A stretch of 64,000 nucleotides of DNA from Chondrosia reniformis (taxonomy: Eukaryota; Porifera; Demospongiae; Chondrillida; Chondrillidae): contig OX359192.1 of assembly GCA_947172415.1 (NCBI GenBank), forward strand, positions 4,528,501 to 4,592,500, written 5' to 3'. Below the pieces are notes generated by a model. That model saw nothing but the letters and a program-made list of their open reading frames with translations, was not told the origin of the DNA and did not search any database. The translations under genes and the position numbers were made by a program. Below, piece by piece: positions 26,667-62,100 of the stretch (position 1 is its first letter; each line of letters opens with the position of its first letter).

Positions 26667-26709
26667 TAAAGATGTATGTACTATGTCAATGTACTATATA
26701 CTTACTAGA
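26667..26709 (+). repeat. Core A, copy 1 (F-to-R junction), interrupted
   Basis: Conserved non-repeat junction (GATGTATGTACTATGTCAAT, then GTACTATATACTT) found wherever the array turns from forward to reverse. Here the family E fold-back begins right after it, and the reverse array resumes only at about 27456. Confidence 0.8.
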
Positions 26710-27455
26710 GAACAATTAACATTCTCTACAAAAATTGTGAAGATGTAAGGATGGCACAAAAAGCACAGAAACAAGAAAGGGATGTTACACATTGAAGCAT
26801 TAGCTAAATATGCATGAATCATACAATACCCTTGCTTGAAGGATTCATGCATAGCTAATGCTTAACTGTGTAATATACCTTTCTTGTTTCTGTGCTTATT
26901 GTGCCATCCCTACATCTTCACTCATTTTGTAGAAAATTTTTATTGTTCTTTAGTTTCTGTATTTTTTATGGGGCATAAGCTAGGAATTCGTTGTATTTTA
27001 AGCCACTTTGGTTTCGCAATTTTCAACTGAATATGACATCATTAAAATAGCGAATTTATTGAAGTTTTGCCTCTGGGGCAATCAAAAACGTCATACTCAA
27101 TAATAGCATTTTTGCTCTCGCTTCTACAAGAGAATACAGTTCGGAAAATTTAGAGTATTTTCGTTTAAGAAGTAGTCCGAAGGCTTATTTTGTTTTTTAG
27201 TTACAGCGGGTGAAGAAGATGAAGAAGATGAAGATGAAAATGAAGAAGAAAACGAAAATGGGAGATTTTAAAGTTCGTTCATTAGCCAACGATACATGGT
27301 CGCTTACCTTCAAGGCCTATTTATAGCATAGCTGTTCTATATTTAACTCTACATAGTCTCGTTTTGGCTATTTTCAGCCTAATTCGGAATTTCGCTCCTG
27401 TATCAATGTACGGCGAAAACAAATTAACCAGTAACTTCACTACATAGGGTTGTAT
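26705..27455 (+). mobile_element. Family E element, copy 1, with 115-bp fold-back
   Basis: Non-array insert. The left part is a large hairpin: about 26705-26820 pairs with about 26838-26953. The rest matches a second copy nested in family M (about 46990-47640), including the stretch around GACATCATTAAAATAG and CGTCATACTCAATAATAGC. At 27205-27265 there is a purine-rich GAAGAAGATGAAGAAGATGA run that would encode an acidic peptide, but no convincing ORF surrounds it. Class unknown; it could be a retro-element remnant with an inverted 5' end or a fold-back DNA element. Confidence 0.65.
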
Positions 27456-27535
27456 GTACTAGTTCTACGTGTAAAAGCTAGTTATATGTATTAGTTGTAT
27501 GTACCAGTTATATGTACTAGTTATATGTATAAGTT
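27456..27535 (-). repeat. 13-bp minisatellite, reverse orientation, short arm
   Basis: About six units of the complement (TGTATGTACTAGT). The series of variant units matches, in inverted order, the arm that lies just right of core B copies 2, 4 and 5. Confidence 0.88.
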
Positions 27536-27660
27536 GTGACAGGAAAGGTTGTCTTAATGACTACGTAGTTTTTTTAATTTTAGGTATGTCATTTTAAACA
27601 ATAAAATTAGCTATTTAAACTATATGATGTTGTTTGGCATATACAATTGTATTCACTGCA
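27536..27660 (-). repeat. Core B, copy 1 (R-to-F junction)
   Basis: A 125-bp non-repeat segment starting GTGACAGGAAAGGTTGTC and containing GGTATGTCATTTTAAACAAT and ATATGATGTTGTTTGG, ending TTCACTGCA. It is the reverse complement of copies 2, 4 and 5 and co-linear with copies 3 and 6. It is A/T-rich and I see no coding potential. Confidence 0.85.
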
Positions 27661-28220
27661 CAACTAGTACATACAACTAGAACATATAACGAGTACCTAC
27701 AATTAGTACATACAACTAGTACAAGCAACTATTAACAAGTACATACACCTAGTACGTGGAACTAGTATATACATCTAGTGCATACAACTAGTACATACAA
27801 CTAGTTCAAACAACTAAGACATAGAACTGGTACATACAACTAGTCCCTAACACTAGTACATGCAGCTATTACAAAGAACTGGCACATACAACTAGACCAT
27901 ACAACTAGACCATACAACTAGTAACTAGCATATAAAACTAGTTCATACAACTAGTACATACAAGTAGTACATACAACTAGTACATACAGCTAGTAACGTG
28001 TAAACAAAAATAGTACATACAACTAATACATACAATTAGTACATACATCCAGAACATACAACTAGTATATACAACTAGTAACGAGGACATACACATAGTA
28101 CATAGAACTAGTGCATACAACTAGTAAATAAAACTAGTACATACAAATAGTATATAAAACTAATACATACAACTAGTACAAAAAACTATTACTACAACTA
28201 GTAGAAACAACTAGTACATA
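27661..28220 (+). repeat. 13-bp minisatellite, forward arm
   Basis: Degenerate ACTAGTACATACA units between core B copy 1 and core A copy 2. The last 80 bp (ACTATTACTACAACTAGT and following) resemble the arms preceding the other core A copies. Confidence 0.93.
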
Positions 28221-28279
28221 CAAGATATATGTACCATGTCAATTTACTATATACTTGTAGTTCTAGTCTAATGTACTAG
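28221..28279 (+). repeat. Core A, copy 2 (F-to-R junction)
   Basis: CAAGATATATGTACCATGTC, then TATATACTTGTAGTTCTAGT, at the point where the array turns from forward to reverse. Similarity to the other core A copies extends about 80 bp left and 180 bp right into the arms. Confidence 0.85.
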
Positions 28280-29269
28280 TTTTATGTACTAGTGGGTTAC
28301 ACTGTTTTTATGTACTAGTTCTTTGTGTATGTACTAGTTCTACCTACTAGTTGTAGTACTAATTTAATGTGCTAGTGGTATGTACTTATTGAATGTACCA
28401 GTTCCATGTTATAGTTAGATTAGACAAGTTGTATGTACTAGTTGTAGGTACTAGTTGTTTGTACTAGTAGTACGTATATTTACTAGTTGTAGGTACTAGT
28501 TGTGTGGACTAGTTGTGTGAATTAGATGTATGTACTAGTTGTTTGTGCCAGTTGTATTTACTAGTTGTATGTACTCAATACTAGTTTTATGTCCTAGTTC
28601 TATGTACTAGTTGTATGTCCTACTACTAGTTCTATTTACTAGTTGTAGGTACTAGGTGTATGTACTAGGTACTTCTTATATGTACTGGTTGTATTTACTA
28701 GTTGTATGTACTACTTCTTTGCACTAGTTCACTGTACTAGTTGAAGTACTAGTTGTATGTTCTAGTTGTATATACTAGATATTTGTACTAGTTGTATGGA
28801 GTAGTTGTATCAACTAGTTGCATGTACTAGTTGTATGTACTCGTTACTAGTTGTATGTACTAGTTGTGTGTACTAGTTGTATGTACTAGTACTGGTTATA
28901 TTTACTAGTTGTAGGCAAAAGTTGCCTGTACTAGTTATATGTAACAGTTACTAGTTGTGTGGTCTAGTTATATATACTAGTATATATACTGTATGTACTA
29001 ACTCTAGGTACTAGTTGTATGGACTAGTTTTATGTACCAGTCCTATGTACTAAAGTTGTTTGTACAAGCTTTATGTTCTACTTGTATGTACTAGTTGTAT
29101 ACACTAGTTCTATGAACTAGGTGTATGTACTCATTAATAGTTGTATGTCCTAGTTGTAGGTATTACTTTTAGGTACTAATTGTATGTACTATTTGTATGT
29201 ACTAGTTGTCTGTACAAGTTGTCTGTACTAGTTGTCTGTACTAGTTGTCTGTACTAGTTTTATGTACTT
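28280..29269 (-). repeat. 13-bp minisatellite, reverse arm
   Basis: Units read as the complement, TGTATGTACTAGT. The first 180 bp follow the same order of variants as the arms right of core A copies 4, 5 and 6, including AGTTAGATTA near its end. Confidence 0.93.
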
Positions 29270-29390
29270 GAAAAAATTGAATGTGAAAACGACATCATAT
29301 GGTTAAAATAACAGGTAATTTTATTGTTTCAAATGACATACCTTAAATTAAAACACCTAACTTGTGGTTATAACAACCATACCTGCCTCA
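29270..29390 (+). repeat. Core B, copy 2 (R-to-F junction)
   Basis: The orientation opposite to copy 1: CATCATATGGTTAAAATAAC, TTTTATTGTTTCAAATGACA, ending ACCTGCCTCAA. The arm on the right matches those of copies 4 and 5 for at least 200 bp. Confidence 0.85.
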
Positions 29391-31130
29391 ACTAGTACAT
29401 ATAACAAGTACACATAACTGGTACATACAACTAAAACATAAAACTAGTTTTTACACGTAGAACTAGTACATCCAACCAGTACATAGAACTGGTACTACAA
29501 CTACAACATACAACTAGGACATACTACTAGTATATACAACTACTACAAACAACTAGTACATACAACTAATATTACAACTAGAACATAGAACTAGAGTATG
29601 CAACCAGTAGATACAACTAGTACATACAATTAGTACATACAACTAGCACATACTACTAGTTCATACAACTAGTACATACATCTAATGCATACAACTAGTA
29701 TATCAAATTGCTACTTCAACTACTACATACAACTAAGACATACAACTAGTATTACAACTAGTACATAGAAGTAGAGTATTCAACTAGCAGATACAACTAG
29801 TACATACAGCTAGTACATACAACTAGTACAAGCACCTAGTGCTACAACTAGTTGATACAACTAATACAAACAACTAGTATTATAACTAGTATATTAAATT
29901 AGAGTATATGGCTAGTATATACTAATATACTACTAGTACATATATCTACTACTTACAACTAGTACATGCAACTACCACATGTAATATACAACTAGTTCAT
30001 ATGACTAGTATTTACACATAGAATTAGTACATATAGCTAGTCCATTCAACTGGTACACACAACTAGTACATACAACTAGTACATATAACTATAACATATA
30101 ACTAATGCATAAAACTAGAACATACAACTAGTACATCCAAATAGTAAATGGTACATACATCCAGTAAATATAACTACTACTAGTACATACAACTAGTTCA
30201 TACAACTAGTACATACTACTAGTTCATACAACTAATACACACAAGTATTAAATACCACTAGTACATAGAACTTTTACATGCAAGTAGGTCATACAACTAG
30301 GCCCATAGCTAGAATATAGAACTGGTCCATACAACTAGGAAATTCAAAGAGTACATATAACTAATACAGGCAACTAGTACATAACACTAGAAAATATAAT
30401 TGGTACATACAACTAGAACAAGCAACTAGTACATTCAACTAGTTACTAGTACATCCAACTACTACATGCAACTACTCCTACTACTATGCACAATTAGTTA
30501 AGGCAACTAGTACCTATCACTAGTAAAAATAACTAGTCCTAGTACATACAACTAATTCAGGCAACTGGTACGTAAAACTAGTACATGCAACTAGTACATA
30601 CAACTAGTACCTACAACTAGCACCTAAAACCAGTTTATAAATATAACTAGTACTAGTACATACAACTAGTTCATACAACTATACATACAACTGTTTCATA
30701 CAACAAGTAAATACAACTAGTACATACAACTAGTACTTGCAATAGGTATATACAACTGGTACAAACAACTAAAACATGCAACTATTACATACAGCTTGTA
30801 CTATAGCTAGTGCATAGAAGTGTTGCCTACAACATGTACATACAATAACTACATACAACTAGTACATACAACTGGTACATACAACTAGTATTTGCAATAG
30901 GTATATACAACTAGTAGAAACAACTAAAACATGCAACTATTACATACAGCTTGTACTATAGCTAGTGCATAGAACTGTTGCCTACAACATGTACATACAA
31001 TAACTACATACAACTAGTACATACAACTGGTACATACAACTAATACACACCACTAGTTCATACAACTAGAACCTACACGTAGTAAATATAAATAGTCCTA
31101 TTACATACACATACAACTAGTACATGCAAC
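29391..31130 (+). repeat. 13-bp minisatellite, forward, with 155-bp tandem duplication
   Basis: Degenerate ACTAGTACATACA units. A block containing GCAATAGGTATATACAACT is repeated at about 30739 and 30894, offset 155 bp (about 12 units). No gene is visible before the Tigger terminal repeat. Confidence 0.93.
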
Positions 31131-31462
31131 TACAGTAAAACCTCTAATAGCGGACTCTCCGAAAAGCGGACAAACTCTTTACAGCGGACAAATCTTACGC
31201 CCCCATTGACTTTCCCATAGAACTAGTACATTTTGAACCTCCGAGTAGCGGCACCTCTGAACTCCGAACAACGGACTCTCACCAAGCCTCAGACTGATCT
31301 CTGACAATACACACTGACGTCCGAAAGCAGGCCGTGACGAAACCAAATCACCCGTAATATACGGACATGGCGTCGATTTGCTAACTAATACGATAAAACT
31401 TGTCAATAGTTACAGTGAACAAAATTAATGTATAGTCATAAGTATCTAGCTATATAAAATAG

Positions 31463-31861
31463 CTACAGATGTCCAGCGGATCGTACGGAGTCAACGAATT
31501 CCTTCATTTTATTAACTTGGGCCTTGGGTTCATACAAACGGTAGGTACATGGGACCTCTGGTCCATACCCAGCTCCTCGGTTGACTTTGTCTCCAGTGAC
31601 CTCAGCAAAACCCTTGTTGATGTCCCTCCTCAGAAATGCTGACACCTTTGGCGCTATATTGTAAGGAATATGCCCAACAATGTGGTTATCATAATATACA
31701 GCCACTGCATGTACATCGTGGATATTGGTTGGTTCTCTCTTCAGTACAAGTGCCTGTCCAGCATTGGGAGTCCAACTCTCCACACAGGCATGGTAGCCCC
31801 TCACGCATGACTGAAATTCTACAACATGCAGCTCTCCAGTAGCGGCGATTTGACTAGCCAT
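31463..31861 (-). CDS. HIRAN-domain-like protein inside Tigger, copy 1
   Basis: An uninterrupted 132-aa ORF with ATG start (MASQIAATGELHVVEFQSCV). The body resembles HIRAN domains: VRGYHACVESW, then LVLKREPTNIHD.HAVAVYYD, HIVGHIPYNIAPKVSAFL, EVTGDKVNRGAGYG and PEVPCTYRLYEP. In the protein HLTF the HIRAN domain binds single-stranded 3' DNA ends; small stand-alone relatives are common in invertebrate genomes. It lies head-to-head with the transposase, 131 bp between the start codons, suggesting a shared bidirectional promoter. It has no disabling change, unlike its neighbour. Domain call is by motif pattern from memory; function within the element is unknown. Confidence 0.72.
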   Translation of the reverse strand: MASQIAATGELHVVEFQSCVRGYHACVESWTPNAGQALVLKREPTNIHDVHAVAVYYDNHIVGHIPYNIAPKVSAFLRRDINKGFAEVTGDKVNRGAGYGPEVPCTYRLYEPKAQVNKMKEFVDSVRSAGHL

Positions 31862-31992
31862 TTCTTCATCAGATCAATATTATGCACTTTGCATATCCTG
31901 GCCTTTGACCCCTGCAGGTTTCAAAATAACCTAAGCCACGTGTTAGCCTCCAGGACGTTTTTGTGTAGAGTTTTGTAACGCCTGTGTGCAGT
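31862..31992. promoter_or_regulatory. divergent intergenic region, HIRAN ORF and transposase, copy 1
   Basis: The 131 bp between the two divergent start codons contain CACGTG (an E-box) and the partly palindromic ATGCACTTTGCATAT, but no clear TATA box for either gene. A bidirectional promoter is inferred only from position. An identical segment precedes the second pair (34078-34208). Confidence 0.35.
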
Positions 31993-33583
31993 ATGGCTTC
32001 AAAGCCCAAGAGTAACTACCTGAACCTAAAGAAGAAAGTAGAAGTTATAAAGACAGCTGAGAAGAATCGAGGTATGAGCATACGAGAATTGGCAGAACAG
32101 TTTGATTGTGAAAAAACTCAAATTGCAAAAAAATTTAAAGACAAGGAGTCCACACTGTCTTCTATACGAGCCCAAAGCTTAAAGAATCCGGGTACTTACC
32201 AGTAAAACATATGGTCGGCAATCTGAGTATGCTGATGTTAATAAATCCCTTTATGATTGGTATATCCTTGCTTGTTCTAAAAACATCTTTCCTATGGGTC
32301 CTCAGCTAGCCGAAAAGGCAAGACAGATTGCTACTTGTCTTGGAAAGCATGATTTTAAGGGGTCTAATGGCTGGTTAGAAAAGTGGAAAAAAATATAAAA
32401 CAGCTAGAATCAGTGGAGAATCAGGGGATGTACAAGGGCCTACTGTTGATTCCTGGGAGAGAGGCTTCCTAAACTTGTTGCAGGGTATGCTAGAGATGAT
32501 ATAGGGAACATTGATGAGACAGGGCTATTTTGGAAAGCATTACCAGACCATGGGTTTGGGGTAAAGGGAAAAGAATGTAGGGGAGGAAGGAAAAGCAAAC
32601 AATGATTTACAGTTGCCTTTTTCGTCACTGCATCTGGGAAAAAAGAGAGGTCAGTTGTGATTTGGAAAGCAGAAAATCCAAGATGCCTAAAGAGATTTGA
32701 CAAAGTTCTTTTACCTGTTGATTATTATAGCTAGAAAAAGGTATGGATGGATGGTAAGATCTTGGAATCAATTCTCACTAAATTAAATCATCGCTTGTCC
32801 AGTAGTAGCCGTTCTATCATCTTACTGATGGATAATGCTGTATAATAAACAAAGTTTAGCAACATAAAAGTCTGCTTTCTTCCAGCCAATACAACATCAA
32901 AGCTCCAGCCGCTTGATCTTGGGATAATCCAAAATTTCAAAGTCCACTATCGCAACCTTTTTTTGAGGTACATTCTTGCTAAGATTGACGAGTGTGATAG
33001 TGCTAGTGATGTTAGTAAATCAATTAATGTTCTTGTAGCAGTTAGGTGGATTGCCATGGTATGGTCTTTAGTTGAAGAGGAAACAATCCGGAAATGTTTT
33101 CGTAAGGCTGGTATTCTTGATTTGGACATGGCTGTTGTTGAACGTGATGAGGAAGACCCATTTTCAGAAGCTGATCAGTGTGTGGTACTTCAGAGTCTCA
33201 TTGATAAAACCATGAGTGGTCATGAAGCTTGTCCATTGCAGGAGTACATTAATGGGGATGAAGATCTAGCAGTATGTAGTAACATTAATGACCACAGCTG
33301 GGAAAGCACTTTCTTCAAAAATCTTGGTCAGGAGGATGAAGAAGTATCAGACAATGAGGAGCAAGAGGAGCAAGAAGATATGGATGATAATCCCCCACTG
33401 TAGTTAAAGATATATAAGGAAGCAAATGAATTTTTAGAAGAAGTTCAATGGTTTTTGGAAACTAAAGCACATGTTAAAGAGGCTCTGACAGTAGGGTCTG
33501 TTGTAGACAACGTTTCAAGTTTACAACTAGCAGTGGCCAGACAAACCACCCTCACCTCCTGGCTCAGTAGTGTTAACAATTGA
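31993..33583 (+). pseudogene. Tigger transposase, copy 1, decayed
   Basis: Starts at ATG 31993 with a CENP-B-type helix-turn-helix (LKKKVEVIKTAEKNRGMSIR, then LAEQFDCEKTQIAKKFKD). The frame breaks near 32195, and the second DNA-binding and catalytic parts lie in other frames: YDWYILACSKNIFPMGPQLA, NGWLEKWKK, then the DDD catalytic triad in IDETGLFWK, LLMDNA and NTTSKLQPLDLG. The C-terminus carries an acidic stretch and the family-typical ARQTTLTSWLS ending at TGA 33581-33583. I count about three frameshifts and five in-frame stops, including TAG at 33401-33403. The same defects are in copy 2, so decay preceded the duplication. Confidence 0.88.
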
Positions 33584-33678
33584 TGGCGTCCATTTGCTAA
33601 CTAATACGATAAAACTTGTCAATAGTTACAGTGAACAAAATTAATGTATAGTCATAAGTATCTAGCTATATAAAATAG

Positions 33679-34077
33679 CTACAGATGTCCAGCGGATCGT
33701 ACGGAGTCAACGAATTCCTTCATTTTATCAACTTGGGCCTTGGGTTCATACAAACGGTAGGTACATGGGACCTCTGGTCCATACCCAGCTCCTCGGTTGA
33801 CTTTGTCTCCAGTGACCTCAGCAAAACCCTTGTTGATGTCCCTCCTCAGAAATGCTGACACCTTTGGCGCTATATTGTAAGGAATATGCCCAACAATGTG
33901 GTTATCATAATATACAGCCACTGCATGTACATCGTGGATATTGGTTGGTTCTCTCTTCAGTACAAGTGCCTGTCCAGCATTGGGAGTCCAACTCTCCACA
34001 CAGGCATGGTAGCCCCTCACGCATGACTGAAATTCTACAACATGCAGCTCTCCAGTAGCGGCGATTTGACTAGCCAT
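33679..34077 (-). CDS. HIRAN-domain-like protein inside Tigger, copy 2
   Basis: A second 132-aa ORF, identical to the one 2216 bp upstream except for one Asn-to-Asp change (QVDKMKEF against QVNKMKEF). Same HIRAN-like motifs and the same divergent placement next to a transposase copy. Being intact twice reflects the recent duplication, not independent selection. Whether it is expressed cannot be told from sequence. Confidence 0.7.
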   Translation of the reverse strand: MASQIAATGELHVVEFQSCVRGYHACVESWTPNAGQALVLKREPTNIHDVHAVAVYYDNHIVGHIPYNIAPKVSAFLRRDINKGFAEVTGDKVNRGAGYGPEVPCTYRLYEPKAQVDKMKEFVDSVRSAGHL

Positions 34078-34208
34078 TTCTTCATCAGATCAATATTATG
34101 CACTTTGCATATCCTGGCCTTTGACCCCTGCAGGTTTCAAAATAACCTAAGCCACGTGTTAGCCTCCAGGACGTTTTTGTGTAGAGTTTTGTAACGCCTG
34201 TGTGCAGT

Positions 34209-35799
34209 ATGGCTTCAAAGCCCAAGAGTAACTACCTGAACCTAAAGAAGAAAGTAGAAGTTATAAAGACAGCTGAGAAGAATCGAGGTATGAGCATACG
34301 AGAATTGGCAGAACAGTTTGATTGTGAAAAAACTCAAATTGCAAAAAAATTTAAAGACAAGGAGTCCACACTGTCTTCTATACGAGCCCAAAGCTTAAAG
34401 AATCCGGGTACTTACCAGTAAAACATATGGTCGGCAATCTGAGTATGCTGATGTTAATAAATCCCTTTATGATTGGTATATCCTTGCTTGTTCTAAAAAC
34501 ATCTTTCCTATGGGTCCTCAGCTAGCCGAAAAGGCAAGACAGATTGCTACTTGTCTTGGAAAGCATGATTTTAAGGGGTCTAATGGCTGGTTAGAAAAGT
34601 GGAAAAAAATATAAAACAGCTAGAATCAGTGGAGAATCAGGGGATGTACAAGGGCCTACTGTTGATTCCTGGGAGAGAGGCTTCCTAAACTTGTTGCAGG
34701 GTATGCTAGAGATGATATAGGGAACATTGATGAGACAGGGCTATTTTGGAAAGCATTACCAGACCATGGGTTTGGGGTAAAGGGAAAAGAATGTAGGGGA
34801 GGAAGGAAAAGCAAACAATGATTTACAGTTGCCTTTTTCGTCACTGCATCTGGGAAAAAAGAGAGGTCAGTTGTGATTTGGAAAGCAGAAAATCCAAGAT
34901 GCCTAAAGAGATTTGACAAAGTTCTTTTACCTGTTGATTATTATAGCTAGAAAAAGGTATGGATGGATGGTAAGATCTTGGAATCAATTCTCACTAAATT
35001 AAATCATCGCTTGTCCAGTAGTAGCCGTTCTATCATCTTACTGATGGATAATGCTGTATAATAAACAAAGTTTAGCAACATAAAAGTCTGCTTTCTTCCA
35101 GCCAATACAACATCAAAGCTCCAGCCGCTTGATCTTGGGATAATCCAAAATTTCAAAGTCCACTATCGCAACCTTTTTTTGAGGTACATTCTTGCTAAGA
35201 TTGACGAGTGTGATAGTGCTAGTGATGTTAGTAAATCAATTAATGTTCTTGTAGCAGTTAGGTGGATTGCCATGGTATGGTCTTTAGTTGAAGAGGAAAC
35301 AATCCGGAAATGTTTTCGTAAGGCTGGTATTCTTGATTTGGACATGGCTGTTGTTGAACGTGATGAGGAAGACCCATTTTCAGAAGCTGATCAGTGTGTG
35401 GTACTTCAGAGTCTCATTGATAAAACCATGAGTGGTCATGAAGCTTGTCCATTGCAGGAGTACATTAATGGGGATGAAGATCTAGCAGTATGTAGTAACA
35501 TTAATGACCACAGCTGGGAAAGCACTTTCTTCAAAAATCTTGGTCAGGAGGATGAAGAAGTATCAGACAATGAGGAGCAAGAGGAGCAAGAAGATATGGA
35601 TGATAATCCCCCACTGTAGTTAAAGATATATAAGGAAGCAAATGAATTTTTAGAAGAAGTTCAATGGTTTTTGGAAACTAAAGCACATGTTAAAGAGGCT
35701 CTGACAGTAGGGTCTGTTGTAGACAACGTTTCAAGTTTACAACTAGCAGTGGCCAGACAAACCACCCTCACCTCCTGGCTCAGTAGTGTTAACAATTGA
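34209..35799 (+). pseudogene. Tigger transposase, copy 2, decayed
   Basis: The tandem copy of the transposase, ATG at 34209, end at TGA 35797-35799, with the same CENP-B-like N-terminus, the same DDD residues (IDETGLFWK, LLMDNA, LQPLDLG), and, as far as I can read, the same frameshifts and stops as copy 1. It adds no functional transposase. The element would need a transposase in trans to move. Confidence 0.87.
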
Positions 35800-36032
35800 T
35801 GTTTTCATTAATCTACTGTAACATGCATGTATTTGTCACGTACTTCTGAAACATCTGTTAAAATTATTTCACATGAAAGTTAATATCATTATATATGTAT
35901 GATTTTATTATAATATCACATTTCAAGGACATTCTAGTAGGTTATAGACAAACCTCTGAGAAGAGGACAACCTCTCTACAAAGGACAAATCGCCGTCCCC
36001 TGATTTGTCCTTTGTTCGGAGGTTTTACTGTA

Positions 36033-39000
36033 GTAGTGAGTACCTACAAGGAGTACATAAAACTAGTAACGAGTACATACAACTACTACATACAACTAGA
36101 ACATACAATTAGTACATAGACCTAGTAAATACAACTAGTACATACAACTAGTAAATACTACTAGTACATACACCTAGAAAATACAACTAGTACAAACAAC
36201 TAGTACATACAACTAGTACATACAGCTAGTGCATACAACTGGTACATACAACTGGTACATTCAACTAGTACATGCAATTAGTACTACAGCTACCACATAG
36301 AACTGGTGCATACAACTAGTAAATACAAAGAGTACATACAACTAGTCCATTCAACCAGTACAAATAATTAGTATGTATATAGAATTAGAATCTACATCTA
36401 GTAATTAAAACTAATACTAGTACATACAACTAGTACATACTACTAGCACTTTACAACTAGTAAATATAACTAATACTAGTACATACAACTAGTACATACC
36501 AACTGGTACATACATGTAGTACATTCAACTAGTACATGCCACTAGTACTACAGCTACTACATAGAACTGGTGCATACAACTAGTAAAGAGTAGTACAACT
36601 AGTACATGCAATTAGTACATACAACTAGTACATACAACTAGTACATACAATTAGTACATACAACTAGTACCTACAACTAGTACCTACAACTAGTAAATAT
36701 AACTAGTACTAGTACATATAACTAGTTAAAACAACCAGTACATACCACTAGTACATAGTACCGGTAACAAGTGCATACAATGAGTTCAAACAACTAGTAA
36801 CGAGTACTTACAACGAGTACATACAACTAGTTCATACAACTAGTACAACAAGTAGTACATAGAAGTAGTTTAAGCAACTAGTACATACAACTAGTACATA
36901 CAACTAGTTCATAACCAGTATATATGACTATTACACATACCTAGTACAGACAACAAGTACATGCAACTAGGACATGTAAACTAGTACATACAAATAGTAC
37001 ATAAAACCAGTTCATACTACTAGTCCATATAACTAGTACATAGAACTAGTACATATACCTAGTACATACATCCAGTACATACAACTATTACATGTAACTA
37101 GTACATTCAACTGGAACTGCAGTTAGTATGCATAATTTGTGCATACACCTAGGCAATGCAATAAAACTAGTACATATAACTAGTACATGTTACTAGAACA
37201 TACAACTAGTACATACAAGTAGAAACTGGTACATATAACTAGTAACTAGTACATACAATTAGTACATACAATTAGTACATACTATTAGTACATACAACTA
37301 GTACCTACAACTAGTATATATAACTAGTACTAGTACATACAACTTGTACAAACAACTGGTAATGAGTATATACAACGAGTTCATACAACTATCACATACA
37401 ACTACTACATGAAACTAGGACATACACCTAGTATATAAAACTAGTACACACACTAGTCCATACAACTAGTACATACAACTAGTTCATGCAACTGGTACAT
37501 ACAACCAGTACTAAAGTTAGTACATAGAACTGGTACATACAACTAGTTATTACAAAGAATACATACAACTAGCACATACGACAAGTACATTCAACTAGTA
37601 ACAAATACACACAAGGAATACATACAACTAGTAACGAATACATAGAACGAGTACATACAATTAGTACATACAACTAGTACACACAATTAGTAAATACATC
37701 TAGTACATTCAACCAGTACCTACAACTAGTGCGTACCACTAGTTCCTACAAATTGTAAATATGACTAGTACTAGTACATACAACTAGTTCAAATGACTAG
37801 TACACACAACTAGTACATACAACTAGTAACGAGTACATACAACCAGTACATACATCTAGCAAATAAACCTGCTACATAAAACTAACACTTGCAACTGGTA
37901 CAAACAAATAGTACCACAGCTAGTTCATACAACTGGTGAATACAACTAGTAAATACGAAGGGTACAAACAACTAGTACATACAACTAGTACATACAAATA
38001 GTAAGGAGTACATACAATAAGTACATACAACTAGTAACATGTACATACAACGATTACATACAACTAGTACAAACAACTAGCACATACAACTAGTACAAAC
38101 AACTAGTACCTACAAATAGTAAATATAACTAATACTAGTACAAAAACTAATTCAAACAATTTGTAACGAATTCATTCAATGAGTACATCCAACTAGTAAC
38201 GAGTACAGACAATGGACACATACAACTGGTTCATACAACTAGTATACACAACAAGTACAAACAACTGGTACATACAACTAGTGCATACAATTAGTACATA
38301 CGACTAGTACTTAAAACTAGCACATTCAACTAGGACCACAGCTAATACATGGAACTGGTGCATACAACTAGTAAATACAAAGAGTACACACAACCAGTCC
38401 ACACAATTTGTACATACAATTAGTACGTGCAACTAATACATAGAAATAGTTCTATAGCTAGTACATAGAATTGGTGTATACAACTAGGATATATAAGAGT
38501 ACATACAACTAGTTCATAATCCTAGTACATACAAACAGTATTTATGACTGGTACATACAACTATTACATTCAACTAGTATGTACAACTAGTACCTACAAC
38601 TTTTAAATATAACGTACAAAATAGTACGTACAATTAGGAAATATAACTAATAATTGTACACATACTACTAGTAAATATAACTAGCACTAATAAACATACA
38701 ACTAGTACATACAACTAGTACTCACAACCAGTACATACCAGTAGTTCATAAAACTAGTACGTTCAACAAATATTTACCACTAGAACATACTATAATACAT
38801 TAAACTATTAACTAGAACATCCCATTTGTATATACAACTATTACTTACAATTAGTAAACACAACCAGTACAAACAACTAGTACATACATCTAGTGTGTAC
38901 AAGTAGGACCTACAACTAGTAAATAAAACCAGTACTGGTAAATACAACTAGTACACACAACTAGCTCACACAACTAATACATAAAACTAGTAAATATTAC

Positions 39001-40291: not shown

Positions 40292-40767
40292 GGTCCCTCT
40301 CAATAAACCTGGCCGTTTCACAAGTTACATACGGATGTACGGACGGGTTTGATACGGGGAGTTAAAACAGATAACGTATGGAATTTGAATGCCTTATGGC
40401 CTCATGTCAACGGGTTTAGTACAGATGGATCAAAGCCAATAAGTTTACGTGGTAGGAGGCGAAAATATTTGACTGTCATTATTGCTAAAATAACATTCCG
40501 AAAAGGCGGTAATTTACTAGCTAATATGATTCGTGCTGTGTGTGCTTTGCTTCGAACATTAAAATTCCCCACTTCCTCACAGCCCTGTGGTATCCTTTAT
40601 AATAACAGACTGTGAAGATACCTACGGGTATGGGTGGGTGAACGGGTTTCTTCTATTATGATGAACGGGTTACTGACGAGTCTCGTACTGGTTCGTAAGT
40701 GTGTCTGTGCATAAAAAAACGGTTACGGGTACAGGCGTAGAACGGCCAATTTTTATTGAAAGGTACC
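40292..40767. mobile_element. 476-bp non-autonomous element with about 30-bp terminal inverted repeats
   Basis: Left end GGTCCCTCTCAATAAACC, right end (complement) GGTACCTTTCAATAAAAA, both followed by TGGCCGTT. ACGGGT occurs repeatedly in the interior, clustered near both ends (near 40346, 40408, 40624, 40641, 40666 and 40717), like subterminal binding motifs. No target duplication is clear; the left flank is an (AT)n expansion of the array. An 88-aa open frame at 40349-40615 has no recognisable domain and I do not call it a gene. Superfamily unknown. Confidence 0.7.
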
Positions 40768-44532: not shown

Positions 44533-44596
44533 GCCCCCTAGATTTAGCATAGTGAGCCAAGGATTCACAGAAGATCAAGATAAAGAAAAAGACAAA

Positions 44597-51517: not shown

Positions 51518-51646
51518 TTGTAGAGTGAAACATTTTTATATTAAAACCGCATTATATGGTTAAAATAACAGCTAATTTTATTGTTTAAAATGACATACAA
51601 AAACTTAAAACAACTATGTAGTGGTTATAACAACCAAACCTGTCAC
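51518..51646 (+). repeat. Core B, copy 4 (R-to-F junction)
   Basis: CGCATTATATGGTTAAAATA, GCTAATTTTATTGTTTAAAA, GTGGTTATAACAACC, ending CCTGTCACAA. The same orientation as copies 2 and 5. Confidence 0.86.
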
Positions 51647-54387
51647 AACTAGTACATATAACTAGTACATATAACTGGTACATACAACTAGTGCATATAA
51701 GTAGTACTTAGAAATAGAACTAGTACACACATCCAGTACAAAGAACTAGTACTACAACTACAACATACAACTAGGTCTTATTACTTGTATATACAACTAC
51801 TACAAACAACTAGTGCATACAACTAATATTGCAACAAGTACATAGAATTAGAGTATGCAACTAGTAGATACAGCCAGTACATACAATGACTACATACAAC
51901 TAGGATATAAAACTAGTACATACAACTAGTACATGCAACTAATGCTACAACTAGTTGATACAACTAGTACAAACAACTGGTATTATTACTACTATACTAA
52001 CCGACAGTATATGACTAGTACATAGTACTAGTATATATAATTAGTACTTACAAACTAGTACATACAACTACTACATATAATTGTTATATACAGCCAGTTC
52101 ATTTAACTTGTATTTACACATACAACCAGTACATATAACTAGTACATTCAACTGATACACACAACTAGTACATACAAATAGTACATATAACTATAACATA
52201 TAAGTAATGCATACTACTAGAACATACAACTAGTACATACAATTAGTACATACAACTTAGTACATACAACTAGTTCATATATACAAGGAGTACCCACAAC
52301 CAGTACACACAGCTAGTACATACAACTAGCACCTACAACTAGCACATACAACTAGTACATACTGCAGCTAATATATAGAACTGGTGCATACAACTAGTAA
52401 ATACAAAGAGTACATAAAACATGTACATACAATTAGTAAATATACCTAGTTCATATAACTAGGACATACAACTAGAACACACAACTAGTACATACAACCA
52501 GTAACTAGTACATACAACTAGTACCTATAACTGGGATCTAAAACTAGTTTATAAATATAACAAGTCCTAGTACATACAACTTATTCATACAACTATACAT
52601 ACAACTAGTTCATCCAACTAATACATGCAACGAGTACATACAACTAGTACCTACACGGAGTAAATATAACTAGTCCTAGTACATACAATGTAGTTCAAGC
52701 AACTGCTACATAGAACTAGTACATGCAACTAGTAATGAGTACATGAAAGGAGTACATAAAACTAGTAACGACTACATACAACAAGTAGATACAACTAGTA
52801 CCTACAATTAGTACATACACCTATTAAATACAACTAGTACATACAACCAGAACATACAACTAGTACATACAACTAGTAAATATAACTAGTACTAGTACAT
52901 ACAACTAGTTCTTATGATTAGTACAAATAACTAGTACATTTAACTGGTACATACAACTACTTCATTCAATTAGTACATACAACTAGCACTTCAGCTACTA
53001 CATAGCACAGGTGCATACAACTTCCAAATACAAAGAGTAAATACAACTAGTCAATACAATTAGCACAAACAACTTGTATGTACAACTAGAACCTTCAACT
53101 AGTAAATATAACTAATTCTAGTACTTAGAAGTAGTACATACTACTAGTACACACAACTAGTAAATATAACTAGTACTATTACATTCAACTAGCACATACA
53201 ACTAGTACATACAACAAGTATGTACGTATAGTACCTACAACTAGTAAATATACCTAGTACTTATACATATAACTAGCACTTACAACTAGTATATACAACT
53301 ACTACATGCAACTAGTACACACAACTTGGTAGTATATAGAATTGCTGCATACAACCAGTAAATAGAAAGACTACATACAACTAGGGCAGACAATTAGTTC
53401 ATACAACTATACCATAGAACTAGTGCATACAATTAGTAACTAGTGCATACGCTTAGTACAATTAGTACCTACAAATAGGAAATACAACTGGTACTAGTAC
53501 ATGAAACTATTACATACAACTAGAACATACAACTAGTACATACAACTAATACATACAACTAGTACATACAACTAGTACATACAACTAGTACTACAGCTAG
53601 TAAACAGAGCTGGTGCATACAACAAGCAAATACACAGAGTACAAACAACTAGTATATACAACTAGCACATACAACTAGTACCTACAACTAGTAAATATAA
53701 CTAGTGGCAATAAATAAAACTAGTTCATACAACTAGTACAAACAACTAGCCGTAAATAGAAAGAGTACATACAACTAGTTCATACAACTGGTTCATACAA
53801 TTAGTATTAACAACTAGTACCTAAAAGTAGTATATACAATTAGTAAATACAACTAGTACTTACAACTAGTAAATATAACTATTACTAGTACATACAACTA
53901 GATAAAACAACTACTAATGAATTCACACAACGAATACATGCATCTAGTAACAAGTACATACAACGAGTACATACAACCAGTTCATACAATTAGTACACAC
54001 AACTAGTACTTACAACTGGTACAGACAACTAGTACATACAACTAGTGTGTACAACTATGTAGTGCCTACAATTATTACATACAAATAGTAAATATAACTA
54101 GTAATAGTACACATACAACGAGTATATACAATTAGTACACACAACTAGAACTGTAGCTAGTACATAAAATTTGTGCATACAACTAGGAAATACAATGAGT
54201 ACATACAACTAGTATATACAACTAGTACATACAACTAGTACATATAACTAGTAAATACAGCTAGCACATACAACTAGTACATACAGCTAGTGTGTACAAC
54301 TATAAATTGCCTACAACTATTACATATAACTAGTAAATATAACTAGTAATAGTACATATACAACTAGTAAATAAAACAATAGTTCGA
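51647..54387 (+). repeat. 13-bp minisatellite, forward arm
   Basis: Degenerate units. The first 200 bp match the arms right of core B copies 2 and 5. Near the right end, a block with GTGTGTACAACTAT recurs about 255 bp apart (about 54045 and 54300). It ends at PLE-A copy 2 instead of at a core A. Confidence 0.92.
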
Positions 54388-54411
54388 GTTGTTCACATCC
54401 CCCATCCTGAC

Positions 54412-54816
54412 ACAACCACCTATGGATATCAAGGGTGTAGTTTACCTAATTCCTTGCTCTGAGTGTTATGCAGTCTACATTGGTGAAACTGGAAGGACCC
54501 TGAAAGTGAGATTGGCAGAGCACAAGCGAGCAGTCAGGATGGGGGATGTGAACAACGGTATAGCTGTTCACTCCCTCAAGACTGGCCACTAAATTGCTTG
54601 GGACAAGGCCAAGATTACAGACAGGGAAACCCACTGGCAAAGGAGAAGGGTCAAAGAAGCCATCAGGATCCAGAAGAGTCAGGTGAGAATGAATTTAGAT
54701 CAAGGCATTGTGTTACATCAAGGCTGGAGACGATTTAATATTCATACTTCCTGTTTTTCTCATTCTGCTGAGGGTCACATGACAGGAAGTGGAAATGGCG
54801 GGAACAATCCTCTATA
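54412..54816 (+). pseudogene. PLE-A GIY-YIG endonuclease domain, copy 2
   Basis: GVVYLIPCSEC...VYIGETGRTLKVRLAEHKRAVR shows the GIY-like and YIG strands, the C-x2-C pair and the Arg/His region; DVNNGIAVHSLKTGH follows, then KITDRETHWQRRRVKEAI with the Glu-containing helix. The frame is interrupted after KTGH (54590-54592) and then continues open to about 54816. Better preserved at its N-terminal side than copy 1. The RT is absent. Confidence 0.87.
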
Positions 54817-54845
54817 AATAGAGGCAATTCTTCCACTCAACCATC

Positions 54846-54880
54846 AGTCACTGAGGAAGACCCCCAGGGTCAAAACGTTT
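54846..54880 (+). ncRNA. hammerhead-like motif in PLE-A copy 2
   Basis: CTGAGGA, A, stem GACCC/GGGTC with loop CCA, then AAAAC where copy 1 has GAAAC. The strong stem is conserved, but two core positions differ from the hammerhead consensus, so it is probably inactive if it ever was a ribozyme. Confidence 0.35.
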
Positions 54881-54990
54881 GACCAAGAATTGAAAAAACC
54901 AACTGCGTTTTTAAACGCTCAAAAGTCGAAGGATGTACCATCCCAAAGATAAGTTCGATGCTGTTATAAGGAATCCTTATTTTATTATTG

Positions 54991-56314
54991 TAAGTACTAG
55001 TTTAATGAACTCGTTGTATATACCACATGTATGTACTAGTTGTGTGTATTCGTTACTAGTTGTATGTACTTGTGCTAGTAATATTTGTTTGTATTAGTAG
55101 TAGGTATATTTACTAGTTGTATGTACTAGTTGTGTGTATTAGATGTATGTACTAGTTACTACTTATATGTACTAGTTGTTGTGCTATTTTAATGTTCTAG
55201 TTTTATATACTACTTTTTAGAACCAGTTGTATGTACTAGTTCGATATGTATGTACTAGCTATATGTACCAGTTGTGTGTACTAGTTGTATGTACTAGTAG
55301 TAGTTCTAGTTGTATGTTCTATTTGTGTGTATTAGTTGTATATACTAGTTGTATGTACTATATATATTTACTTGTTGTATGCTCTATTTGCATGTTCTAG
55401 TTGTATGTAGTAGTTGTGTGTAGTAGTTGTATTTACTAGCTGTTTGTATTTGTTGTATGTACTAGTTCTATGTGCTAGTTGTAGGTATTAGTTGTATTTA
55501 TTAGTTGCATTTACTAGATGTATGTACTCGTTACTAGTTGTATGTACTAGTTTTATGTACTAGTTGCATGTCCTACCCCAAGTTATATTTACTAGTTGTA
55601 AGTACTAGTTGCTTGTACTAGTATTAGTTATATTAACTAGTTGTAGGTACTAGTTGAATGTACTAGTTGTGAGTATTAGATGTATATATGAACTAGATAC
55701 TTCTTATATGTACTAGTTGTATGTACTAGTTCTATGTACAAGGAGTAGAATTAGTTGATGTACTATTTGTATGTACTAGGTATATGTACTAGTTGTAGAA
55801 TTAGCTTAATGTACTAGTTATATTTACTACTTGTAAGTAGAAGTTGTAAGTACTAGTGATATATGTATGTACTAGTTATATGTGCTAATGGAATGTACTC
55901 GTTAAATGAACTAGTTATATGTCCGACTTATGTATTAGTTGTAAGTTCTAGTTGTATGTACTAGTTGTATGTACTAGTTGCATGTACTAGTAGTATGTAT
56001 TCGTTACTGGTTGCATGTACTAGTTCTATATACTAGTTGTATGTACTAGTTGTATGTCCTAGTTGTATGTACTAGGACTAGTTATAATTACTAGTTGTAG
56101 GTAATTGTTGCCTGTACTAGTTATATGTACTAGTTGCATGTACCAGTTACTAGTTGTATGGTCTAGTTGCATATATTAGTTCTATGAACTAGGTGTATGT
56201 ACTCATGAATAGTTCTATGTACTCGTTCTAAGTACTACTTGTAGGTACTAGTTGGGTGTATTATTTGTAGGTACTAGTTGTGTGTATTATTTGTATGTAC
56301 TATTTATATGTACC
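54991..56314 (-). repeat. 13-bp minisatellite, reverse arm
   Basis: Reverse-oriented units from PLE-A copy 2 to core B copy 5. No gene is visible. Confidence 0.93.
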
Positions 56315-56441
56315 TGTTGTACAGTTAAATATTTTATGTCACAACATCATATGGTTAAAATAACATCTAATTTTATTGCTTAAAATGATATACCAAAAAT
56401 TAAAACAACTAGCTGGTGGTAATAATAACAATACCTGTCAC
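56315..56441 (+). repeat. Core B, copy 5 (R-to-F junction)
   Basis: CATCATATGGTTAAAATAAC, ATCTAATTTTATTGCTTAAA, ending ACCTGTCACAA. The right arm repeats the variant order seen after copies 2 and 4. Confidence 0.86.
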
Positions 56442-59398: not shown

Positions 59399-59455
59399 CA
59401 AGATGAATGAACTATGACAATGTACTAAATACTTATAGGTCTAGTCTAATGTACT
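59399..59455 (+). repeat. Core A, copy 5 (F-to-R junction)
   Basis: AAGATGAATGAACTATGACA, then ACTTATAGGTCTAGTCTAAT. More diverged than copies 2 and 4; shares ATAGGTCTAGTC with copy 3. Confidence 0.82.
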
Positions 59456-60368: not shown

Positions 60369-60487
60369 TGTGACCCGAAAGGTTTTCAAAACGACTACCT
60401 AGTTGTTTTAATTTTGGATATGTCATTTTAAACAATAATATTAGCTGCTATTTTAACTATATGATGTTGTTTTGATATACAATTTTT
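60369..60487 (-). repeat. Core B, copy 6 (R-to-F junction), split by family M
   Basis: GTGACCCGAAAGGTTTTCAA, GGATATGTCATTTTAAACAA, TATGATGTTGTTTTGATATA. The terminal few bases (TTCACTGTAC) continue at about 60893-60902 after the family M insertion. Confidence 0.84.
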
Positions 60488-60894
60488 AGGGGCTGCCACA
60501 GGCAGCCCCTTATATTGTTTTCATTTGCCGATTACGTTGTACGGCTTCGTGTTACGGAAAGATATATATATATATATCTATATATATAATACGGGTTCAT
60601 ACGCAACTATTATAATACTTATTTAATATGTCAATATATGTATAATATGAGTTAATACGTAACTATTGTTACACTTAATTTATACGTCAATATATCGTTT
60701 TTGCAAATGGCGGCGTTCAGGAAGCTTTAGTTAACGAAGCTTTTACATCGTTATTTATAAAGTTCAGGACACTTAAGCATCCTCAATCGTTAGCATTACG
60801 AATATATATATTAAATCCCAACGATGTGGCCAAGTAGTTCGAGTTAATTCGGGGGCGGCAGCCCCACGAGTTTTTAAACTCAAACTACTTGTTT
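60488..60894 (-). mobile_element. Family M element, copy 3, inverted
   Basis: Minus-strand copy of the element at 21498: right hairpin AGGGGCTGCC-ACA-GGCAGCCCCT at 60488, (AT)n at about 60561-60592, AACGCCGCC complement near 60710, left hairpin with GGGGGCGGCAGCCCC near 60852, ending AAACTACTTGTTT. It interrupts core B copy 6, so the core predates it. Confidence 0.82.
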
Positions 60895-60961
60895 CACTGT
60901 ACAAACTAGTACATTCAACTTGAACATACAACTAGTACATACAACTAGAACTTACAACTGG
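60895..60961 (+). repeat. 13-bp minisatellite, forward, short
   Basis: The last bases of core B copy 6 and then about four forward units before the pogo-like element. Confidence 0.88.
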
Positions 60962-60963
60962 TA

Positions 60964-61317
60964 CAGTACAACCTTGGTTATCCGAACCTCAATTAACCGG
61001 CTGCTCGGATTATCCGGACTCAAAGGTCGCATAATCTTATTAACGCCCAACCTTTTTTTGCGAAGTAATGGCTAGTTCGAGTGGCTCTGCGAGGAAAAGG
61101 AAGCGCTTAGTTCTTCCCCTAGAGAGCAAGATAGCTATACTGGAGCGACTGAAGGCTGGAGCAACCCAAGCGCAGCTTGCAGAGGAGTACGGGATCAGAA
61201 GTTTGACCGCTGGCGATATCAAAATTACATATTTATTAGGATGATTCACATATCCGGCCGTTTCACTATTCGGCCATAGCTTGGTCCCATTGAGGCCGGA
61301 TAAACGAGGTTCTACTG
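60964..61317 (+). mobile_element. Tigger/Jerky-type deletion derivative, 354 bp
   Basis: Ends CAGTACAACCTTGGTTATCC (left) and, complement of right, CAGTAGAACCTCGTTTATCC; a TA precedes the left end (60962-60963), while TT follows the right. Subterminal TTATCCG/CGGATAA motifs recur. It keeps the first 50 or so codons of a transposase fused by internal deletion to the 3' end, a typical origin for MITEs. Its ends differ from those of the 4.9-kb Tigger, so it belongs to another subfamily. Confidence 0.82.
61068..61244 (+). pseudogene. transposase N-terminal remnant (CENP-B-like helix-turn-helix)
   Basis: A 58-codon ORF from ATG 61068 to TGA 61242-61244: MASSSGSARKRKRLVLPLES, then KIAILERLKAGATQAQLAEE, then YGI. 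This is the start of a CENP-B/Jerky-type DNA-binding domain with a basic N-terminal patch. After YGIR the sequence jumps to unrelated residues where the internal deletion lies. It could at most make a truncated DNA-binding peptide. Confidence 0.72.
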
Positions 61318-61319
61318 TT

Positions 61320-62043
61320 TCTACAATTAGTACTTACAACTAGTACAAACAACAATTAATGAGTATATAAAACTAGTACCTGGAACTAGTATATAAAACT
61401 AGTAAATGCAACTATTACATACAACTAGTACAAACAACTAGTACATAAAACTGGTACATACAACTAGTCCATACCACTAGTACATGGAGCTATTACATAG
61501 AACTGGTACCTACGACTAGACCATACAACTAGTAACTAGTACATACAACTGGTACATACAGCTAGTACCTATAACTAGTAAATAAGACTAGTACTAGTAC
61601 ATACAACTAGTACAAACAACTAGTACATAAAACTGGTACATACAACTAGTCCATACCACTAGTACATTCAGCTATTACATAAAACTGGTACATACAACTA
61701 GTCCATACACCTAGTACGTACAACTGGAACATACAACTAGTACCTACAATTAGTACTTACAACTAGTACAAACAACAATTAACGAGTATATACAACTAGT
61801 AAATGCAATTAGTACATACAACTAGTACAAATAACTAGTACATAGAACTGGTACATACAACTAGTACTTACAATTTGTAAATATTACTAGTAATAGTAGA
61901 TACAACTAGTATATACAAATAGTACACTAAACTGGAACTACAACAATTACATAGAACTAGTACATAAAATTAGTACATAAAACTAATACATACAACTAGT
62001 ACAAACAACTATTACTACAACTAGTACATACAACTAGTACATA
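61320..62043 (+). repeat. 13-bp minisatellite, forward arm
   Basis: Degenerate forward units, with an internal near-duplication of about 240 bp (ACAACTAGTACAAACAACTA and following near 61425 and 61605). It leads into core A copy 6. Confidence 0.92.
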
Positions 62044-62100
62044 CAAAATGTATGTAATATATCAATGTACTATATACTTGTAGTTCTAGTCTATTGTACT
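62044..62100 (+). repeat. Core A, copy 6 (F-to-R junction)
   Basis: CAAAATGTATGTAATATATC, then TATATACTTGTAGTTCTAGT. The array turns from forward to reverse. Confidence 0.84.

What the first reader, a model, noticed from the sequence alone, without database searches (positions are those of the whole stretch)
26667..62100. Alternating forward and reverse 13-bp arrays with two dedicated junction sequences
The minisatellite changes strand at least twelve times. Every F-to-R switch except the one now occupied by PLE-A copy 2 carries core A, and every R-to-F switch carries core B. The region is a chain of long imperfect palindromes. Tandem-repeat turnover alone does not give inverted arms or conserved, type-specific junctions. 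This fits a Foldback-like mobile or amplifying unit whose inverted arms consist of short tandem repeats, or a satellite that grows by inverted duplication. I know of no described family with this unit and these cores.
Basis: partly seen in the sequence, partly recalled or inferred. Interest (0 to 1): 0.85.

Follow-up and report, generated by a model that had tools for sequence, protein, structure and literature searches.

The report
Mirror-image satellite DNA near sponge centromeres
A sponge chromosome carries a 13-letter repeat that keeps flipping direction, and the special sequences at the flips look like heirlooms copied along with larger blocks of the repeat, not like the ends of a jumping gene.

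Summary
In the window the 13-bp satellite changes strand 13 times. Core A sits at 6 of 7 F-to-R switches, core B at 6 of 6 R-to-F switches, one B truncated. Over 264 kb of contiguous C4 there are 16 + 16 switches; 14 of 14 A hits lie at F-to-R and 15 of 16 B hits at R-to-F switches.

The Foldback-element reading is not supported: the cores were not found dispersed. They fall into subtypes that recur in the order [A1-Bα-A2-Bβ], four times plus a partial copy. Arms at the same position are more alike. One insertion sits at the same base of three A copies. A mirror duplication is centred on one A2 core. So the junctions are inherited by higher-order tandem and inverted duplication.

The genome matches Chondrosia reniformis. 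Satellite hits lie mid-chromosome on all 14 chromosomes, so it is probably (peri)centromeric; that is inferred. One C2 F-to-R switch shares a different junction with 16 other places. Closest known case: macro-dyad satellites of Tribolium madens with conserved inversion sites (PMC13081366).

The parts
3912..26652 (+). F-strand 13-bp arrays (unit ACTAGTACATACA), interrupted by other DNA including mobile elements; no strand switch mapped
   Evidence: strand map; TRF
26669..26704 (+). core A, subtype A1, left half; cut by an insertion of about 740 bp (26,705-27,440) found at the same base of two other A copies
27537..27648 (+). core B, subtype alpha, at R-to-F switch
28222..28275 (+). core A, subtype A2, at F-to-R switch
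29274..29387 (-). core B, subtype beta, at R-to-F switch
29389..41335 (+). F arm between B-beta and A1 (6.5 kb of satellite; carries a duplicated DDE_1 transposon)
41342..41398 (+). core A, subtype A1
41379..45205 (-). R arm between A1 and B-alpha, interrupted by a Penelope-like element (41,656-44,797)
45210..45262 (+). core B, truncated, groups with subtype alpha
   Evidence: missed by the profile search
48152..48205 (+). core A, subtype A2
51534..51645 (-). core B, subtype beta
54360..54994 (+). F-to-R switch occupied by a PLE 3' fragment, no core A; its two neighbouring B cores are both beta in the same orientation, as if part of a unit were missing (inference)
56331..56440 (-). core B, subtype beta
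59400..59453 (+). core A, subtype A1
60371..60485 (+). core B, subtype alpha
62046..62098 (+). core A, subtype A2
62077..64000 (-). R arm running out of the window to B-beta at 64,849 (264-kb coordinate), interrupted by a PLE piece (62,973-63,948)

Best explanation
This is part of the (peri)centromeric satellite of the sponge Chondrosia reniformis. At some point the 13-bp array folded back on itself and gave an F-to-R junction (core A); an R-to-F junction (core B, about 115 bp of AT-rich DNA that is not array-like) was also in place. A block holding both became a higher-order repeat, [A1 - R arm - B-alpha - F arm - A2 - R arm - B-beta - F arm], and was amplified in tandem (four full copies and a partial one between 26.7 and 124.5 kb of the 264-kb stretch). 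Later a segment holding several of these junctions was copied in mirror orientation about one A2 core. The junctions recur because they are inherited with the copied block, while the 13-bp units between them keep turning over. Shown: positions, subtypes, order, shared insertion, mirror chain. Inferred: that fold-back template switching or break-induced copying made the inversions, that B flips arose by exchange between inverted arms, and that the block lies at the centromere.
For: Order and subtypes: the B tree splits alpha (5 copies, all +) from the rest, UFBoot 97. The A tree splits A1 from A2, UFBoot 87, 92 when the interrupted rows are trimmed to core letters and 97 when they are left out. 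Positions of the hits give the order A1-Ba-A2-Bb four times, then Ba-A2-Bb. The two B cores beside an A are in opposite orientation in 10 of the 10 cases where one A lies between two B cores (read off; the cases are not independent). Arms at the same position are more alike than arms at different positions: 1 of 126, 2 of 126, 17 of 462 and 1 of 462 label partitions reach the observed difference. The same insertion sits at the same base of A at 26,704, 72,337 and 187,416. Mirror: five left-right core pairs are sisters in the trees with UFBoot 79-100, in reverse order about 138,847; nine collinear inverted blocks, 22.5 kb at 87.5%. The one of 20 random centres that scored as high as A2 lies at 138,981, 0.1 kb from it. 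Genome: satellite hits mid-chromosome on all 14 chromosomes. One C2 F-to-R junction matches full length at 16 other places on C2, C3, C4 and C6, three of them spaced exactly 7,651 bp. A C2 R-to-F junction was matched full length only by itself, while its two halves abut un-inverted at 17 other places on six chromosomes.
Against: Arms beyond about 100 bp of a core fall to array background when all copies are pooled, so homology of whole units is weak and rests on subtype-aware tests. F arms at the A end give only 17 of 462; arms next to core-less switches, and the F arm left of A2 138,847, were placed by their B core. Three F-to-R switches lack A and one R-to-F switch lacks B. The unit order is broken once inside the four copies (a second B-beta at 56,331) and does not hold to the right of 124.5 kb. 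Of eight left-hand cores from 64,849 to 124,471, three (73,882; 82,818; 105,998) have no partner found on the right, and the mirror arms differ in length. Another nine of 20 random centres, and four of 20 other switches, scored 6,447-8,590, about half of A2's value, because of the further inverted pairs near 196-204 kb. No centromere mark (CENH3) was available. How the first junctions arose is not shown.
Confidence: 0.82

Rival explanations
1. A Foldback-like DNA transposon: inverted terminal arms made of 13-bp repeats, A or B as its middle, moved by a transposase.
For: Anatomy: inverted arms of short tandem repeats around a core. Foldback elements can seed satellites, as reported for Tetris of Drosophila virilis (PMC4079207, abstract seen).
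Against: Cores found on C4 with a few B copies on C3 and C11. The C3/C11 copies share one PLE junction. The isolated C12 array has one strand only and no core. Two C2 switches have no core B and no A-grade match. Subtypes predict position.
Confidence: 0.05
2. Each switch is an independent fold-back event at a preferred sequence: core A (a snap-back tip) and core B are hotspots.
For: The A tip AGTACATACA-AGA-TGTATGTACT is a perfect 10-bp snap-back at 41,344 (sequence). One of two A copies folded does clearly better than its shuffles (z -2.4). An inverted join without A or B exists on C2.
Against: Shared insertion at the same base of three A copies; subtype order and arm similarity by position. 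The second A copy folds with z -1.7 and two core B copies fold no better than shuffles (z 0.20 and 0.06).
Confidence: 0.08
3. Functional constraint keeps the junctions alike: cores bind a protein or form a structure needed for (peri)centromeric chromatin, and copies without them are lost.
For: A and B copies keep register in a region in which the array itself drifts. A function for inversion sites has been suggested in Tribolium (PMC13081366, passages).
Against: Core B copies are 79-89% identical to the query copy, not held tightly. Three of 16 F-to-R switches do without A. Another junction serves on C2, C3, C4 and C6. Common descent explains the likeness.
Confidence: 0.12
4. Assembly or library artefact (inverted chimeras, misjoins).
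For: Raw reads could not be checked. The published assembly has 42 contigs and manual curation corrected 20 joins.
Against: Inverted chimeras should give near-identical arms (general knowledge); here mirror arms differ by 8-19% and other arms more. No N in 264 kb. Separate places on several chromosomes share a junction. HiFi data at about 70x.
Confidence: 0.03

Closest known systems
Macro-dyad satellite DNAs of Tribolium madens (TmSat1, TmSat2; PMC13081366, abstract and passages seen)
   Same: Putative (peri)centromeric satellite whose kilobase subarrays change strand. Few inversion-site types, conserved within type; at the TmSat1 sites one of the two facing subunits is degenerate (compare core A). 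Symmetries of up to tens of kb. The authors allow that conservation may reflect how the blocks are spread.
   Different: Unit 13 bp instead of about 110 bp; a sponge, not a beetle. Core B copies here are 11-21% off the query copy instead of 1-2% diverged. Here the junction subtypes form an ordered higher-order repeat on one chromosome, and B is not array-like.
Foldback / Galileo / Tetris elements (PMC4079207 abstract; PMC3573991 and PMC4168063 listing only)
   Same: Long inverted arms with internal tandem repeats; Tetris repeats feed satellite arrays.
   Different: No dispersed core-bearing units found, no target-site duplication seen, no transposase tied to the cores.
Higher-order repeats of centromeric satellites, such as alpha satellite (recalled)
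   Same: Position-specific subtypes in a fixed order; local tandem amplification.
   Different: Both strands occur within one higher-order unit, and the subtypes traced here are junctions instead of monomers.

Membership tests
Foldback-type transposon | dispersed copies at unrelated sites | tested here: not met
   A on C4 only, apart from one 3-mismatch partial match on C3; B on C4 x14, C3 x2, C11 x2. Lower bounds: one search listed 9 of the 14 known A copies; the array-like left half of A cannot be told from array by pattern.
Foldback-type transposon | target-site duplications at unit ends in unique DNA | tested here: inconclusive
   No core-bearing unit in unique DNA was found. The one isolated array read (C12) has no core.
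Foldback-type transposon | inverted arms of short tandem repeats | tested here: met
Foldback-type transposon | transposase or a related autonomous element | not tested
   DDE_1, RT, GIY-YIG and PIF1 matches occur in the window, but no link to the cores was tested.
Macro-dyad satellite (as in Tribolium) | satellite subarrays in opposite orientation, kilobases long | tested here: met
   32 switches in 264 kb; some subarrays are shorter than 1 kb
Macro-dyad satellite (as in Tribolium) | few, conserved inversion-site types | tested here: met
   A 14 of 14 and B 15 of 16 hits at their own switch type; a third type at 17 places on four chromosomes. But one C2 R-to-F junction matched only itself.
Macro-dyad satellite (as in Tribolium) | on all chromosomes in putative (peri)centromeric blocks | tested here: met
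   Complete list of 47 perfect five-unit matches: C2-C13, mid-chromosome except one place on C3. C1; C14. Known exceptions: C3 6.98-7.16 Mb and C12 0.46 Mb. Lists were cut at 100. Strand switching was seen only on C1, C2 and C4 and in junction matches on C3 and C6.
Centromere DNA | CENH3 occupancy or kinetochore association | not testable with these tools
   No ChIP or Hi-C data at hand.
Higher-order repeat | position-specific subtypes in fixed order; same-position units more alike | tested here: met
   (weakest: F arms at the A end, 17 of 462; one break in the order at 56,331)

The most novel reading that the evidence does not exclude
Animal (peri)centromeres repeatedly converge on mirror-image satellite architecture: in a sponge, as in flour beetles, the satellite is kept as alternating strands whose fold points are distinct, copied modules that act as seeds for fold-back replication of whole arms, so that centromere DNA grows and is homogenised by palindromic copying instead of by unequal exchange alone.
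Probability: 0.22. Interest if true: 0.78.

Novelty: new variant of a known kind. Interest (0 to 1): 0.52.

Why it matters
I met no description of sponge centromere DNA, but the search was shallow: one paper search gave nothing, one on Chondrosia satellite DNA gave nothing, and one listed 12 of 26 papers that I did not read. If the block is centromeric, strand-switching satellites with conserved fold points occur in two distant animal lineages, which makes the proposed link between dyad symmetry and centromeres testable outside insects. The ordered junction subtypes also give a readable history: junctions are stable landmarks in an array whose 13-bp units have largely lost register, so tandem amplification, flipping and mirror duplication can be told apart and put in order.

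Tried and rejected
Whole-264-kb BLAST with short words timed out and was replaced by a stricter run. A pooled flank test showed homology over only about 100 bp and seemed to speak against higher-order units. It mixed subtypes; the subtype-aware test gave the opposite. One search kept the F arm left of A2 138,847 as a class of its own; one search grouped it with the other B-beta arms. Clean palindromes at every switch: rejected. A hammerhead-like motif in the PLE 3' fragment: no Rfam match. DNA folding of core B: nothing beyond shuffles. I first thought core B marked the outer ends of an element on C3 and C11; the DNA outside those copies is a PLE 3' end shared by all four, so that reading was dropped. 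I considered the C2 R-to-F palindrome as a clean snap-back with a short loop; the arms do not match right up to the switch, so only the weaker statement (halves un-inverted elsewhere) is kept. The C2 F-to-R switch in L047 shows no mirror arms in the 356 bp available (78% excluding gaps). The core A profile gives weak matches throughout C2 arrays (best 20.8 bits, one of 13.7 bits 43 bp from the L047 switch, against 32-59 bits for the 14 hits on C4), as expected if A is degenerate array. The inverted pairs near 196-204 kb were not resolved. C1, whose listed pattern hits run on one strand up to 4.237 Mb and on the other from 4.290 Mb, was not read. Paper searches gave 2 and 14 papers; of these only PMC13081366 was opened (passages).
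Full report
Setting. The window is C4:4,528,501-4,592,500 of a 117,379,552-base, 15-contig genome. Contig C13 is 6,903,244 bp long, exactly the scaffold N90 of the Chondrosia reniformis assembly odChoReni1.1, which has 14 chromosomes plus a mitochondrial genome, 117.37 Mb in all (PMC12181767; passages and one section seen). I therefore take the genome to be that sponge. A term search of that paper's main text finds no mention of centromeres or satellites.

Observation. A strand map of the unit ACTAGTACATACA gives 7 F-to-R and 6 R-to-F switches in the window. Core A (about 54 bp) is at 6 of 7 F-to-R switches; the seventh holds a PLE fragment. Core B (about 115 bp) is at 6 of 6 R-to-F switches, one of them truncated. 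I read a further 200 kb of C4 to the right. In the joined 264 kb, which has no N, satellite makes up 48% and there are 16 switches of each kind. All 14 core A hits lie at F-to-R switches and cover 13 of 16. Fifteen of 16 core B hits lie at R-to-F switches and cover 14 of 16, or 15 with the truncated copy. One B hit lies between two F arrays. Coordinates above 64,000 below are in this 264-kb frame.

What the cores are. Core A begins at a snap-back tip of the array, best seen at 41,344 as AGTACATACA-AGA-TGTATGTACT, and the rest is degenerate R-strand array: 9 of 14 copies were tested and score z 3.2-5.1 above shuffles for R units. Core B is AT-rich and not array-like. B occurs in both orientations; A is + in 11 hits and - in 3. 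Near the cores, pooled flanks are more alike than background over only about 100 bp, and the two arms of one switch are no more alike than unrelated arrays (12 B and 11 A copies). So most switches are not recent palindromes.

Inheritance of the junctions. A tree of B copies splits five copies, all in + orientation (27,537; 45,210; 60,371; 73,882; 105,998), from the rest with UFBoot 97. A tree of A copies splits A1 (26,669; 41,342; 59,400; 72,302; 187,416; 214,564) from A2 (28,222; 48,152; 62,046; 77,576; 107,840; 138,847; 170,342; 181,937) with UFBoot 87, 92 with the interrupted rows trimmed to core letters, and 97 without those three rows. Read along the DNA, the order is A1-Ba-A2-Bb four times from 26.7 to 82.8 kb, then Ba-A2-Bb to 124.5 kb. 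The only break inside the four copies is a second Bb (56,331) after the PLE-occupied switch. To the right of 124.5 kb the order does not continue. Arms at the same position in this unit are more alike than arms at different positions: among all label partitions, 1 of 126, 2 of 126, 17 of 462 and 1 of 462 reach the observed difference for the four arm ends (inserts left out of the arms; arms beside core-less switches, and the F arm left of 138,847, labelled by their B core). The two B cores flanking an A are in opposite orientation in 10 of the 10 cases with one A between two B cores; of the three F-to-R switches without A, one has opposite and two have like-oriented B cores (read off; not independent). 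The same insertion interrupts A at the same base at 26,704, 72,337 and 187,416, which shows common descent of those copies directly.

Mirror duplication. About the A2 core at 138,847, blocks of the left arm recur inverted on the right: 4,775 bp at 89.4%, 4,202 bp at 92.0%, 1,041 bp at 81%. Five right-hand cores have their sister on the left, in reverse order: 155,779 with 124,471 (UFBoot 100), 170,342 with 107,840 (93-95), 181,937 with 77,576 (79-83), 187,416 with 72,302 (84-88), 198,067 with 64,849 (100). Three left-hand cores in that range (73,882; 82,818; 105,998) have no partner found on the right. A collinear chain of nine inverted blocks covers 22.5 kb at 87.5%; its outermost block is a PLE and may be coincidence, and the arms differ in length. 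Of 20 random centres one scored as high as A2, and it lies 0.1 kb from it (138,981); nine others and four of 20 other switches scored about half as much, because of further inverted pairs centred near 196-204 kb. So there was at least one more inverted duplication.

Not a dispersed element. Core B gives 18 hits genome-wide: 14 on C4, two on C3, two on C11. Core A gives 9 BLAST hits, all on C4, and its right half 7 pattern hits, 6 on C4 and one 3-mismatch match on C3; these are lower bounds, since one search found 9 of 14 known copies. A pattern for the array-like left half gives 778 matches at up to 3 mismatches, of which the four with 0-1 mismatch are on C4; the rest cannot be told from array (list cut). 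The four B copies on C3 and C11 all abut the same PLE 3' end at the same base and group together with UFBoot 99, so they look like copies of one event. A perfect double unit far from the main block, on C12, belongs to a 350-bp one-strand array without core or inverted arm.

The satellite at large. The 26-bp double unit at up to 3 mismatches occurs 92,482 times on + and 97,737 on -, against 2,941 in the 264 kb read, which hold 126.5 kb of array. By proportion this gives about 8 Mb, a crude figure because younger arrays match better. Perfect five-unit matches (47, complete list) fall on C2-C13, mid-chromosome except one place on C3; C1 is seen, C14. Examples: C1 3.82-4.50 of 10.41 Mb, C6 3.98-4.72 of 8.73, C13 2.67-3.53 of 6.90. 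Known exceptions are C3 6.98-7.16 Mb and the C12 array; lists cut at 100 may hide others. A mid-chromosome block on each chromosome is what a (peri)centromeric satellite looks like; CENH3 data are lacking. Two C2 switches were read. They have no core B match, and only weak array-like matches to the A profile. The F-to-R one has 17 full-length matches, itself included, at 87-100% on C2, C3, C4 and C6, plus one at 77% on C14; three on C4 are spaced exactly 7,651 bp, the mark of a young higher-order repeat (40 of 1,561 candidates scored). The R-to-F one at C2:6.108 Mb has mirror arms (about 89% excluding gaps, score 1,296 against 899-991 in nine controls). Its full 161-bp junction was matched only by itself, while its two halves abut un-inverted at 17 other places with both halves at 89% or more, on C2, C3, C4, C6, C10 and C14 (my count; 40 of 2,949 candidates scored, list cut). 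That is an inversion whose parent arrangement is still common. The arms do not match right up to the switch, so the exact join is open.

Mechanism. Best supported: fold-back or template-switch copying creates inverted joins now and then; blocks that contain joins are then amplified as higher-order repeats and sometimes copied in mirror orientation; the joins are carried along. Copying by descent is shown; the biochemical step is inferred. Alternation of A and B follows from geometry: a join of one kind must be followed by a join of the other.

Comparison. The nearest described case is Tribolium madens, whose putative (peri)centromeric satellites form macro-dyad symmetries with conserved inversion sites, some holding a degenerate subunit (PMC13081366; abstract and passages). 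A search for the word macro-dyad gave two papers, both on insects (listing). Foldback elements share the anatomy of the arms but the test of dispersed copies was not met. I found nothing in print on this satellite in this sponge; one search listed 12 of 26 papers on sponges and centromeres that I did not read.

Verdict. Real, well ordered, and best read as a mirror-organised higher-order satellite in a sponge: a new variant of a known kind. The part that could matter most, a role of the fold points at centromeres, is untested.

Noticed in passing
window 31,367-35,801: Two head-to-tail copies of a DDE_1 (pogo/Tigger-like, recalled) transposon, 99.9% identical over 2,219 bp, inside an F array; CENP-B is recalled to derive from this transposase family.
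   Followed up: partly
window 41,709-44,359: Penelope-like element whose GIY-YIG match lies at the start of the reading frame, ahead of the part related to the RT frame at 23,051, as recalled for PLEs with permuted domains; related copies at 23,063-25,251 and 63,019-63,955.
   Followed up: no
window 54,780-54,990: PLE 3' fragment with a hammerhead-like motif (CTGAGGA...GAAAC in related copies, recalled); no Rfam match at E<=1.
   Followed up: partly
L014, L015, L021, L022: Core B copies on C11 and C3, two per chromosome in opposite orientation, all joined to the same PLE 3' end at the same base, 65 kb and 1.16 Mb apart.
   Followed up: partly
G000:C1:3.887-4.502 Mb: Listed pattern hits run on one strand up to 4.237 Mb and on the other from 4.290 Mb, with variants spaced 6,676 bp on the right: perhaps one chromosome-scale strand switch with a young higher-order repeat.
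   Followed up: no
G000:C4:3,973,083 / 3,980,734 / 3,988,385: A shared F-to-R junction repeats at exactly 7,651 bp; at 13 of 17 places my reading finds an inverted copy of its left part 2.6-2.8 kb away.
   Followed up: partly
G000:C3:6.98-7.16 Mb: A second satellite block far from the main one on C3: former centromere, insertion or misjoin.
   Followed up: no
window 423-2,228 (-): PIF1-like helicase frame, possibly a Helitron remnant.
   Followed up: no
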